DNA from: Thermus sp. CCB_US3_UF1
Lineage (GTDB): Bacteria > Deinococcota > Deinococci > Deinococcales > Thermaceae
Direction: 5' to 3'
Assembly (NCBI RefSeq): GCF_000236585.1
Contig: NC_017278.1
Location: forward strand, 1,116,001 to 1,180,000
Length of the DNA: 64,000 bases
A program made the position numbers and the translations under genes. Below, one piece after another: positions 23,463 through 26,416 of this stretch. The notes under the pieces are model-generated. The model saw only the letters and a list, made by a program, of their open reading frames with translations. It made no database searches and was not told the origin of the DNA. Position 1 is the first letter of the stretch; each line of letters starts with the position of its first letter.

Positions 23463-24571
23463 CAGAGGGAGTGTACCAAAGCGGCAGGGGTACCCCGGGT
23501 GAGCCGGGGCGCAGGCAGGCCCAAGGCCCGGTACCCCCCCCGGGTGAGGGCCCGCACCAGGAGGCGGGGGTCCACCTTCCCCCACAGGAAGCGGGCCTCC
23601 TCCTTCACGTCCAGGTCAGGGCTGCTGGCCCGGGAGTCCGTGCCCAGGGCCAGCTCCACCCCGTGCCGGGCGTAGAGGGGGATGGGGGCCTCCCCCACCT
23701 CGAGGCCCCGGTTGGAGCGGGGGCAGAGGACCACCTTGGTGCCGGTCTCCGCCAGAAGCCCCACCTCCTCCTCGTCCACCTGTACCCCGTGGACCAGGAG
23801 GGTGGTGGGGCCCAAGACCCCTAGGGCGTGGAGGTGGCGTACCGGGGTGAGGCCCGGGGGGTCCCAAGGCGTGGAGCTGAAGCGCTGGTGCAAGGCCGCC
23901 AGGGGCCCTGTGCCCCGGAGGAGGAAGTCCACCTCCTCCCGGCTTTCCCCGGCGTGGACCATAAGGGGGATGCCCTCGGCCCTGGCGTACTGGGCCAGGC
24001 GCCCGAGGAGGGGGGGGCTTACCGAGTAGGGCGCGTGGGGCGAGAGGCCCACCCGCACCTTTCCTTCCCGCTTCCGCCAGGCCTCCACCTTGGCCTTCAC
24101 CTTTTGGAAGACCTCTTCCGCCTCCAGGGGATCGGGGGCGAAGACCTCGTAGAAGGCCACCCCGGGGAGGGGGCTTTCGGCGAGGAGGAAGTCCATGACC
24201 TCGTCCTTGAAGACGATGTCGGCAAAGGCCCCCACCCCGGAGGCCACCAAGGCCCTAAGGCCCTCCCTGGCCCCCTCCAGGCCGCGAAGCCCCCGGTGGG
24301 CCACCACGTGGGGGAGGAAGCCGGCGAAGGGGCCTTGGTAGCGGGGGAGGAGGGAGAGGTCCAGGTGGGTGTGGGCGTTGACCGGGGGCGGGAAGAGGGC
24401 CTTTCCCCTTTCCACCACCTCCGCGTGGGGGAAGCGGGCCCGGAGTTCCTCCAGGCTCCCCTGGCCCACCACGAACCCCCCCTGGACGGCTATCCCCCCC
24501 CGGAGCATGGGGGTGCCGAAGCCCGTGTAGACCACCTGGGCGGTCCAGATCTCAGTCCTTAGCCAGGACAT
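23462..24571 (-). CDS. amidohydrolase-superfamily deaminase (Atz/Trz type), possible aminofutalosine deaminase
   Basis: A 369-residue metal-dependent hydrolase. The barrel metal ligands are visible in order: PPPVNAHTHLDLS near residue 62, GLSPHAPYSVSPPL near 175, MVHAGESREEVD near 203 (His, Glu), LLVHGVQVD near 250 and ELALGTDSRASSPDLD near 307 (catalytic Asp). HAPYS and HAGES are typical of deaminases acting on nucleoside-like rings. Thermus makes menaquinone by the futalosine route, which needs an aminofutalosine deaminase (MqnX), so that is a leading guess; another deaminase or N-acyl hydrolase is possible. It overlaps GNAT (20 bp) and ClC (1 bp). Confidence 0.78.
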   Translation of the reverse strand: MSWLRTEIWTAQVVYTGFGTPMLRGGIAVQGGFVVGQGSLEELRARFPHAEVVERGKALFPPPVNAHTHLDLSLLPRYQGPFAGFLPHVVAHRGLRGLEGAREGLRALVASGVGAFADIVFKDEVMDFLLAESPLPGVAFYEVFAPDPLEAEEVFQKVKAKVEAWRKREGKVRVGLSPHAPYSVSPPLLGRLAQYARAEGIPLMVHAGESREEVDFLLRGTGPLAALHQRFSSTPWDPPGLTPVRHLHALGVLGPTTLLVHGVQVDEEEVGLLAETGTKVVLCPRSNRGLEVGEAPIPLYARHGVELALGTDSRASSPDLDVKEEARFLWGKVDPRLLVRALTRGGYRALGLPAPRLTRGTPAALVHSL

Positions 24572-25334
24572 AGCGGTTGGGGTTCCGGGCCAAGTCCACC
24601 GCCCGGTACCCCTGGGCGAAGTAGTGGCCCAGAACCAGGCGGCTGTGTTCCCGCCAGCGGAGGGCCAGGGCCGGATCCTCCCGCAGGATCCTCCCCCAGT
24701 CCTCGGGGATCTGGAAGAGGAGGCGGGGGGCCTCTAGGTCCAGGCGGGCCTCCACGGGCGCCTCCCCCTCCACCCGGTTGGCCTGGGGCAGGCTTAGGAC
24801 CTCTGGGGGTGGGGGCGGGGCGTAGAGGCGGGCGTAGACCCTTTCGGCCAGGAGGTCCCACTCGGCCAGGAGGCGGTCCGAAGGGGCCCCGGCGTTGATC
24901 CCCGTCATGGGGCCGTAGTGGTCGGGCAGGTAGGTGCGGGCGGTGGCCCCCAGCTTCCGCAGGTTGAAGTTGGCGTTGGCCCCCCGCAGGGGGTCAAAGG
25001 TCCAGACCACCTTGCGGATCCCCCGGGCCAGGCACCAGTCCCGCTGGAAGCGCTTGAGGAGCAGCGCGGCCCCCGTGCCCCGGTAGGCCTCGAGGACCCC
25101 CAGCATGTGGGAGTGTTGCAGGGTGGGGTCCCGGGTGGGGAAGCCGAAGACGAAGCCCACCGGCCTTTCCCCCGCGAAGGCCCCCGCCACCAGCCCTCCC
25201 TGGTCCTGGACGGCGATGAGCAGGCCCCTGGGCACCAGGTCCCGCTCCTCCCGCCCCCAGACCTCCCGCTGGAGGTCCACCACCCACTCCATCTCCTCAG
25301 GGCCCCTCAGCTCGCGGACATGTACCTCTGCCAT
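24552..25334 (-). CDS. GNAT-family N-acyltransferase
   Basis: A 260-residue protein. Residues ~1-150 hold a GNAT fold: [21 protein letters not shown] opening, GFVFGFPTRDP strand, HSHMLGVLEAYRGTGAALLLK acyl-CoA binding helix near 72-95 (R-G-T-G-A in place of R-x-x-G-x-G/A), and VVWTFDPLRGANANFNLRKLGA near 108. The C-terminal ~100 residues are not part of the minimal fold. ATG at 25334 fits the family start; it overlaps the racemase gene by 28 bp. In other bacteria a GNAT succinyltransferase is paired with N-succinylamino-acid racemase to convert D- to L-amino acids; this arrangement matches. Confidence 0.8.
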   Translation of the reverse strand: MAEVHVRELRGPEEMEWVVDLQREVWGREERDLVPRGLLIAVQDQGGLVAGAFAGERPVGFVFGFPTRDPTLQHSHMLGVLEAYRGTGAALLLKRFQRDWCLARGIRKVVWTFDPLRGANANFNLRKLGATARTYLPDHYGPMTGINAGAPSDRLLAEWDLLAERVYARLYAPPPPPEVLSLPQANRVEGEAPVEARLDLEAPRLLFQIPEDWGRILREDPALALRWREHSRLVLGHYFAQGYRAVDLARNPNRYVLAKD

Positions 25335-26416
25335 AGAGTGAGGCGTTCCACCAGGGGTAGCTTCAGGTGCACCCCAATCCCCGGGCCCTCGGGCACGGGC
25401 ATGAGGCCTTCTTGGGCCGAGAGGTCCTCCTCCACGATGTCCTCCTCCCAGTAGCGCCGGGCCGAGCTCACGTCCCCGGGCTTGGTGAAGCCGGGAAGGG
25501 TGGCCAGGTGCAGGTTGTGGGCCCGGCCCACCCCTGCCTCCAGCATCCCCCCCATCCAGAGGGGGATGCCGGCGCTCTCCGCCAGGGCGTGGACCTTGAG
25601 GCTTGGCCCGTGCCCCCCCATGCGGGCGGGCTTGACGTTGAAGACCCGCCCCGCCCCCAGCTCTATGGCCTTTCGGGCCTTTTCCGGGGAGGTGAGGCTT
25701 TCGTCCAGGCAGATGGGGGTGGAAAGCTCCCGGGCCAGCTTGGCGTGGTCCAGCAGGTCCTCGTGGCCTAGGGGTTGTTCCAGGTAGTCCAGCCCCAGCT
25801 CGTCCAGGCGCTTTAGCCTTGGGGCGTCGGCCAGCCGGTAGGCGCTGTTGGCGTCGGCGGTGAGGGTGGCCTCGGGGAAGGCCTGGCGCACGGCCTTCAG
25901 GACCTCGTAGTCCCAGCCGGGCTTGATCTTGAGCTTGATGCGCCGGTACCCCTCCTCCAGGTGCTTCTCCACCGCCTTCAGGGTCTCGGCCACCGAGGGC
26001 TGGATCCCCAGGGAAACCCCCACCTCTACCCGGTTCCGCACCCCGCCCAGCACCTGCCAAAGGGGCTTCGCGAGGCCCTTAGCCCAGAGGTCAAAGAAGG
26101 CCATCTCCAGCACCGCCTTGGCCATGGGGTTGCCGCGGAAGGGGGAAAGGGCCTGGGCGAGGGCCTCGGGGTTGGGCAGGTCCTGGCCCAGGACCCGGGG
26201 CAGGAAGACCTCCTCCAGGAGGTATCGGGCGCTGGCCACCGTCTCCTCCCGGTAGAGGGGGAGGCGCTCCATCACCCCCTCCCCCAGGCCCTCGAGGCCC
26301 TCCCCAAAGAGCCTTAGGAGGAGGATGGTCCTTCGGGTCTGCACCCCGAAGCTGGTTTCAAAGCGAAACCTGAGGGGCAACTCCAGGATGCGCAGCTCCG
26401 CCGCCTCTATCCGCAT
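25307..26416 (-). CDS. enolase-superfamily N-succinylamino acid racemase / o-succinylbenzoate synthase
   Basis: A 369-residue muconate-lactonizing subgroup enzyme. Catalytic residues are all present: paired lysines in [12 protein letters not shown] near 160, metal ligands in TADANSAY (Asp) near 188, [12 protein letters not shown] (Glu) near 213 and CLDESLTS (Asp/Glu) near 238, and the opposite Lys in [10 protein letters not shown] near 262. It is ~370 residues long, as in NSAR/OSBS proteins of Thermus and Deinococcus. Because Thermus uses futalosine rather than o-succinylbenzoate for menaquinone, racemase activity is the likelier role. ATG at 26416 overlaps serS by 10 bp; the next gene, a GNAT, overlaps it by 28 bp. 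Confidence 0.87.

What the first reader, a model, noticed from the sequence alone, without database searches (positions are those of the whole stretch)
24552..26416. Racemase-GNAT pair suggests a D- to L-amino-acid conversion route
An NSAR/OSBS-type enolase overlaps a GNAT acyltransferase by 28 bp. N-succinylamino-acid racemase with a GNAT succinyltransferase and a desuccinylase is an established irreversible D-to-L pathway in Geobacillus. Since Thermus uses futalosine for menaquinone, an OSBS role is unlikely. The third gene here is a deaminase-type amidohydrolase rather than an M20 desuccinylase, so the final step would be missing or replaced.
Basis: partly seen in the sequence, partly recalled or inferred. 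Interest (0 to 1): 0.58.

Follow-up and report, generated by a model that had tools for sequence, protein, structure and literature searches.

The report
D-amino-acid recycling enzyme pair in Thermus
Two overlapping Thermus genes most likely attach an acyl group (probably succinyl) to D-amino acids and flip them to the L form, a known type of recycling route; the third gene beside them probably belongs to vitamin K2 synthesis instead.

Summary
On the minus strand an NSAR/OSBS-type enolase (26416-25307, 369 aa) overlaps a GNAT (25334-24552, 260 aa) by 28 bp. A 20-bp overlap leads into an amidohydrolase (24571-23462).

The pairing is not local chance. Of 23 GNAT-family loci found outside Deinococcota, 17 (16 of 22 distinct contigs) have the racemase within 1 kb, in either gene order; none has the amidohydrolase. 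In Lysinibacillus, Priestia, Streptomyces, Arthrobacter and Deinococcus ficus the same pair sits with an M20 hydrolase, the gene content of the D-to-L pathway described for Geobacillus (recalled). Menaquinone is not the role here: the genome carries futalosine-pathway genes and no MenD above cut-off.

The third gene is linked to the pair only within the Thermus family (50 of 50 genomes; 0 of 61 outside it). Its best solved relative is DR_0824, a 6-aminodeoxyfutalosine deaminase (recalled), so it is probably not the missing deacylase. Three M20 genes elsewhere in the genome are candidates for the last step.

Verdict: a Thermus member of a known D-amino-acid salvage module with an unlinked desuccinylase. 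Acyl donor and substrates are untested. By-product: one relative (G004) has a men cluster without menC, and this racemase is its only MenC-type enolase.

The parts
25307..26416 (-). NSAR/OSBS-family enolase (N-acyl, probably N-succinyl, amino acid racemase), 369 aa; Lys pair K163/K262, metal ligands D188, E213, D238
24552..25334 (-). GNAT N-acyltransferase, 260 aa: GNAT fold in residues 2-164 plus a C-terminal extension; predicted D-amino-acid N-succinyltransferase
   Evidence: link to the racemase in other phyla:
25307..25334 (-). 28-bp overlap of the two genes (translational coupling inferred)
23462..24571 (-). Neighbour, probably not part of the pathway: amidohydrolase of the cog0402 type, probable 6-aminodeoxyfutalosine deaminase (MqnX-like); H67, H69, H206, H261, D312
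   Evidence: linkage limited to the Thermus family:
26407..27681 (-). Context: serS, overlaps the racemase by 10 bp (same presumed transcript)
27678..27956 (-). Context: gatC, overlaps serS by 4 bp

Best explanation
The two genes form the core of a D-amino-acid salvage or detoxification route. The GNAT transfers an acyl group, most likely succinyl from succinyl-CoA, to the amino group of D-amino acids (inferred). The enolase, a divalent-metal enzyme with a two-lysine acid/base pair, racemises the N-acyl amino acid (family chemistry established; not assayed for this protein). An L-specific M20 hydrolase encoded elsewhere then releases the free L-amino acid and makes the conversion irreversible (inferred). 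Best candidates for that step are G000:C2:347462-348574, then C2:1385080-1386402, then C2:2132279-2133349, all outside the window. The adjacent amidohydrolase is a futalosine-pathway deaminase that shares the presumed transcript but not the pathway.
For: (1) Pairing across phyla: among 23 non-Deinococcota loci of this GNAT family (22 distinct contigs), the racemase lies within 1 kb in 17 (16 distinct contigs): Chloroflexota, Alphaproteobacteria, Actinomycetota, a Gemmatimonadetes MAG and a MAG labelled Desulfurococcaceae archaeon. Thirteen distinct contigs are same-strand with gaps of 3-402 bp, in both orders (7 and 6); three are divergent with one gene between. The amidohydrolase serves as internal negative control: 0 of 23. 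(2) Operon content: of 11 annotated plasmid places with GNAT that I opened, 11 have a menC-type enolase at or within 1 kb of it and 6 an M20-type hydrolase in the same run (Lysinibacillus, Priestia, 2 Streptomyces, Arthrobacter, D. ficus); others add amino-acid ABC transport genes, MurR/RpiR regulators, beta-lactamase/DD-peptidase-type serine hydrolases or a gene annotated D-aminoacylase. (3) No OSBS need. (4) Catalytic residues invariant in 91 aligned sequences. (5) A D. radiodurans relative, DrNSAR, racemises N-succinyl-phenylglycine with kcat/Km 371,429 M-1 s-1 (PMC8142540 table, passage seen). (6) M20 genes beside the pair elsewhere have close relatives in this genome: 44-47% to the Streptomyces/Arthrobacter ones, 52% to the D. 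ficus one.
Against: No activity is known for these two proteins in anything I read. No sequence feature tested separates NSAR from OSBS: the Arg at 265 that I recalled as NSAR-linked is present in all 91 sequences, including two from men operons. In two Deinococcota families (53 genomes) the two genes are mostly present but unlinked (0 of 53 adjacent). In Thermus they sit in a run of housekeeping genes (gatC-serS), so local adjacency alone says little. The M20 hydrolases next to the pair elsewhere come from at least three subfamilies, so similarity to any one Thermus M20 does not fix function. Six of 23 non-Deinococcota GNAT loci lack the racemase nearby.
Confidence: 0.76

Rival explanations
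1. Same route, but the acyl group is acetyl (or another acyl), so the pair is an N-acetyl-amino-acid racemisation system.
For: Structures of the family are deposited as 'N-acylamino acid racemase' and NSARs accept many N-acyl groups (PMC7431475 passages). The GNAT model matches acetyltransferases best, with many rows tied near Z 15-16.
Against: Reported kinetics for the family favour N-succinyl substrates (DrNSAR, AmyNSAR and GkNSAR rows against N-acetyl rows in PMC8142540). The fold match says nothing about the donor.
Confidence: 0.18
2. The enolase is o-succinylbenzoate synthase of menaquinone synthesis, as NCBIfam TIGR01928 and the plasmid records label it.
For: TIGR01928 326.6 bits; relatives in true men operons exist; one genome of the set (G004) appears to need it as OSBS.
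Against: Window genome: PF02621 x2, MenD below cut-off. 107 of 111 genomes have PF02621, 1 of 111 has MenD above cut-off. Published 0 of 12 MenB.
Confidence: 0.04
3. The three genes are one pathway and the amidohydrolase removes the acyl group.
For: 20-bp overlap; GNAT-amidohydrolase neighbours in 50 of 50 Thermus-family genomes.
Against: Never neighbours in 61 genomes outside that family nor in 23 loci of other phyla. Best solved relative DR_0824 at 261 bits, deaminase-type relatives otherwise.
Confidence: 0.03
4. The GNAT acts on an unrelated substrate such as ribosomal protein S18 (RimI-like) and the pairing is historical.
For: Highest structural rows include RimI and Ard1.
Against: Not among the four RimI-model (TIGR01575) matches of the genome; pairing with the racemase recurs in both gene orders in other phyla.
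Confidence: 0.05

Closest known systems
Geobacillus kaustophilus irreversible D-to-L amino acid pathway: GNAT succinyltransferase + NSAR + M20 L-desuccinylase (recalled; Sakai et al. 2006, paper not found in the library)
   Same: Same two enzyme families next to each other; a Bacilli relative (Lysinibacillus) carries M20-GNAT-NSAR with a GNAT 32% identical to this one.
   Different: No M20 gene beside the pair in Thermus; gene order NSAR-GNAT; the neighbour is a futalosine-type deaminase.
N-acylamino acid racemase structures 2zc8 and 1r0m (D. radiodurans, organism recalled)
   Same: 2zc8 gapless over 369 of 369 residues, 726 bits; 1r0m 470 bits.
   Different: Structures only; the partner GNAT has no solved sequence relative.
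DR_0824 (2imr), 6-aminodeoxyfutalosine deaminase (activity recalled)
   Same: Closest solved relative of the third gene, 261 bits over residues 8-361.
   Different: Genes of this type lie apart from NSAR-GNAT in every genome outside the Thermus family that was searched.

Membership tests
NSAR/OSBS subfamily of enolases (TIGR01928) | score above curated cut-off | tested here: met
   326.6 against 200.65 bits
NSAR/OSBS subfamily of enolases (TIGR01928) | two catalytic lysines and three metal ligands | tested here: met
   K163, K262; D188, E213, D238; invariant in 91 sequences
NSAR/OSBS subfamily of enolases (TIGR01928) | racemase activity on N-succinyl amino acids | not testable with these tools
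   relatives only: DrNSAR kinetics in PMC8142540
Geobacillus-type D-to-L pathway | GNAT of the same family linked to NSAR | tested here: met
   28-bp overlap; same GNAT family in Lysinibacillus M20-GNAT-NSAR, 32% identity over 261 aa.
Geobacillus-type D-to-L pathway | linked M20 desuccinylase | tested here: not met
   no PF01546 match in the window; eight elsewhere in the genome
Geobacillus-type D-to-L pathway | an M20 hydrolase with L-N-succinyl specificity somewhere in the genome | tested here: inconclusive
   three candidates by association in other lineages; the TIGR01891-type M20 found beside the pair in Bacilli matched none of the seven own M20 proteins compared
Classical menaquinone pathway (OSBS role) | MenD present | tested here: not met
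   best own match 68.7 bits against cut-off 244.2
6-aminodeoxyfutalosine deaminase (third gene) | NCBIfam aminofutalosine deaminase family model PRK08418 above cut-off | tested here: not met
   117.5 against 320 bits; closest solved relative nevertheless DR_0824; described as probable only, not filed as a member
6-aminodeoxyfutalosine deaminase (third gene) | metal-site residues and futalosine genes in the genome | tested here: met
   HxH, H, H, D present (the motif is recalled); PF02621 x2

The most novel reading that the evidence does not exclude
NSAR plus this unnamed GNAT family is an ancient, phylum-crossing two-enzyme core for rescuing D-amino acids, into which each lineage plugs its own M20-type hydrolase, linked or unlinked. 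In one Deinococcota lineage (G004) that lost the futalosine genes and holds a menB-E-F-D cluster without menC, the vertically inherited racemase has been taken up as o-succinylbenzoate synthase while still sitting beside the GNAT: a living intermediate of the NSAR/OSBS switch.
Probability: 0.4. Interest if true: 0.58.

Novelty: new member of a known kind. Interest (0 to 1): 0.36.

Why it matters
It gives a genomic reason why futalosine-pathway bacteria keep a gene that databases label menC, and predicts the function of a widespread GNAT family that matched no NCBIfam model here. It also points to a comparison, G004 against Thermus, in which a bifunctional NSAR/OSBS enzyme would be under selection for one activity or for both, a question long discussed for this family.

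Tried and rejected
Amidohydrolase as deacylase: rejected on linkage and relatives. OSBS role: rejected for Thermus, kept for G004. An NSAR-specific residue: R265 (recalled as a specificity residue) is in all 91 sequences, so it discriminates nothing. RimI role: the window GNAT is not among the TIGR01575 matches; Foldseek and VIA rows are generic GNATs and only residues 2-164 were tested, so nothing is claimed about the C-terminal part. Desuccinylase by linkage in the f4 family: the M20 beside GNAT there is tail-to-tail with it, and the own-genome relative also has rlmB beside it without any GNAT, so it is weak evidence. Genes beside the pair in Chloroflexota, Alphaproteobacteria, Actinomycetota, Gemmatimonadota and the archaeal MAG: no M20 among the 20 proteins scanned; eight of the 20 had no Pfam match, and several of these were mechanical frames that may not be genes. 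Assumption that the D. radiodurans MP1 enzyme is PDB 1r0m: wrong, they are different proteins (525 bits), so the published DrNSAR kinetics are not assigned to the GNAT-linked gene. Labelling the two PF02621 genes further: no NCBIfam match. Promoter/terminator scan: nothing above shuffles. Literature: searches did not return the 2006 Geobacillus paper, the DR_0824 paper or a study of the Thermus pair; the library lacks most subscription journals, so this is no claim of absence from print.
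Full report
What is there. The window lies in a Thermus-family genome (G000:C2:1116001-1180000; relatives in the same genus match named Thermus contigs). On the minus strand run gatC, serS, an enolase, a GNAT and an amidohydrolase, each overlapping the next by 4, 10, 28 and 20 bp. The finding's coordinates and its 28-bp overlap are exact.

The enolase. It passes the NCBIfam model TIGR01928 (326.6 against a cut-off of 200.65 bits) and aligns without gaps to 2zc8, deposited as N-acylamino acid racemase (726 bits), and to 1r0m (470 bits). 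The lysine pair K163/K262 and the metal ligands D188, E213 and D238 (roles recalled from the family) are invariant in all 91 sequences aligned. The arginine at 265, which I recalled as linked to racemase specificity, is invariant too, also in two genes inside men operons. Sequence alone therefore does not tell NSAR from OSBS, and context has to.

The GNAT. It is a weak Pfam Acetyltransf_1 match (27.7 bits), has no NCBIfam model and no sequence relative in the PDB up to E = 1. AlphaFold2 on an alignment of 40 sequences gives mean pLDDT 94.9. Residues 2-164 carry the GNAT fold, with best rows tied near Z 15-16 (5isv_A: Z 15.9, rmsd 2.3, 149 aligned). The remaining C-terminal part was not tested alone. 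The GNAT is not among the four RimI-model matches of the genome.

Linkage in Deinococcota. Searching 111 genomes gave the GNAT in 106 (E <= 0.001), the enolase in 105 (E <= 1e-60) and the amidohydrolase in 100 (E <= 1e-45). In the Thermus family the enolase and GNAT are same-strand neighbours in 49 of 50 and the GNAT and amidohydrolase in 50 of 50. Outside it, enolase-GNAT neighbours occur in 3 of 4 (f2), 2 of 4 (f3, plus one divergent pair in G008), 0 of 14 (f4) and 0 of 39 (f5) genomes, while the amidohydrolase is never beside either, 0 of 61 (places). Many of these genomes are fragmented, so some neighbours may be missed. For that count I left out 15 secondary fragment rows of genomes already counted.

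Linkage in other phyla. A scan of genome contigs with a GNAT alignment gave 57 loci, 23 of them labelled outside Deinococcota (22 distinct contigs). The enolase lies within 1 kb in 17 of 23 (16 of 22 contigs); the amidohydrolase in 0 of 23. Thirteen distinct contigs are same-strand with gaps of 3-402 bp, seven as enolase-GNAT and six as GNAT-enolase; three Anaerolineales contigs are divergent with a short-chain dehydrogenase between. The six without it are L117, L136, L140, L142, L148 and L149. Both gene orders in unrelated phyla argue for functional coupling rather than shared ancestry of one segment. Several of these loci are metagenome bins whose labels I did not check.

Operon content on plasmids. 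45 plasmid records hold the GNAT and 64 the enolase at E <= 1e-30. I opened 12 GNAT-holding places chosen from these lists; one had no annotation. In all 11 annotated ones a menC-labelled enolase is at or within 1 kb of the GNAT. Six carry an M20-type hydrolase in the same run: Lysinibacillus (M20-GNAT-NSAR), Streptomyces, Arthrobacter, Priestia (TIGR01891 amidohydrolase) and D. ficus (NSAR-binding protein-GNAT-M20). Five do not: D. radiodurans MP1, Sulfitobacter, two Deinococcus QL22 places and D. psychrotolerans; of these QL22 unnamed4 has ABC permeases, a beta-lactamase-type serine hydrolase and a gene annotated D-aminoacylase. Amino-acid ABC genes and MurR/RpiR regulators recur. Three enolase places in which no GNAT lies directly beside the enolase still have an M20. 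This is the gene content described for the Geobacillus D-to-L pathway, which I know from recall only. The Lysinibacillus GNAT is 32% identical to the window GNAT over 261 aa.

Menaquinone. The window genome has two PF02621 genes; 107 of 111 genomes have the family. MenD passes its cut-off in 1 of 111; the lower-scoring matches elsewhere are presumably other thiamine-diphosphate enzymes. A published survey lists 12 Deinococcus-Thermus proteomes with MqnA, MqnC, MqnD and MenC in 12 each, MenB in none and MenF in one (PMC3914697, section 8 part 1 read). A lone menC in futalosine organisms fits a racemase.

The third gene. Its best solved relative is DR_0824 (2imr, 261 bits), which I recall was shown to deaminate 6-aminodeoxyfutalosine. 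It scores 117.5 bits on the NCBIfam aminofutalosine deaminase model, below the cut-off of 320, so it is described as probable only. Its linkage to the pair is specific to one family.

The missing step. Eight PF01546 matches lie elsewhere in the genome. The M20 beside the pair in Streptomyces and Arthrobacter is 44-47% identical to C2:347462-348574; the one beside the pair in D. ficus is 52% identical to C2:1385080-1386402; the one lying tail-to-tail with the GNAT in three f4 genomes is the relative (58%) of C2:2132279-2133349. NCBIfam puts these in different M20 subfamilies. So a desuccinylase is likely present but not identified.

G004. This genome (97% complete) has no PF02621 match, no amidohydrolase match at E <= 1e-45, and a cluster of MenB, MenE, isochorismate synthase and MenD with no match of the window enolase in the 13-kb stretch. 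Of its four enolase-superfamily matches, I examined three: one is a galactonate dehydratase equivalog, one matches a dehydratase model below its cut-off, and only the GNAT-linked enzyme passes TIGR01928; the fourth (31.5 bits) was not examined. In a 57-row tree it falls in a 29-row clade at 100/99 support, which holds the Deinococcota enzymes other than the f5 ones and two extra f3 copies, together with Levilinea and alphaproteobacterial ones; its exact place within that clade is unresolved. The natural reading is a racemase that also serves as OSBS.

What is shown and what is inferred. Shown: gene structure, families, conserved residues, linkage counts. Inferred: the acyl group, the substrates, the direction of flux and the identity of the hydrolase. 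A D. radiodurans relative has measured N-succinyl racemase kinetics (PMC8142540, passages), but the GNAT-linked D. radiodurans gene is a different protein from the solved one.

Noticed in passing
G004 (L093, L053, L161): A Deinococcota genome with a menB-menE-isochorismate synthase-menD cluster lacking menC, no futalosine genes found, and the GNAT-linked racemase as its only TIGR01928 enolase among those examined: candidate bifunctional NSAR/OSBS.
   Followed up: partly
L151 (NC_000958.1 MP1 plasmid, 97375-98562): D. radiodurans carries on MP1 an NSAR-type gene different from the solved 1r0m protein, separated from the GNAT by a polar-amino-acid binding protein gene that is annotated in two pieces.
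   Followed up: partly
L097 (Thermus parvatiensis), 7823-8867: The amidohydrolase appears split into two frames, a frameshift or a sequencing error.
   Followed up: no
Deinococcota family f3 (G005-G008): Each of the four genomes has a second, diverged NSAR copy (43-47% identity to the window enzyme).
   Followed up: no
G000:C2:1934975-1935466 (L090): A second enolase of the genome resembles L-Ala-D/L-Glu epimerases (below cut-off), possibly murein peptide recycling.
   Followed up: no
window 21482-22192, 28733-29386, 29295-30473: Neighbouring genes: a PIG-L deacetylase resembling BshB1 (below cut-off), a stand-alone MnmC2 methyltransferase, and a polysaccharide deacetylase with a YkoP domain.
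   Followed up: no
public plasmid records: GNAT-linked racemases are routinely labelled menC, o-succinylbenzoate synthase, also in organisms where that role is doubtful.
   Followed up: partly
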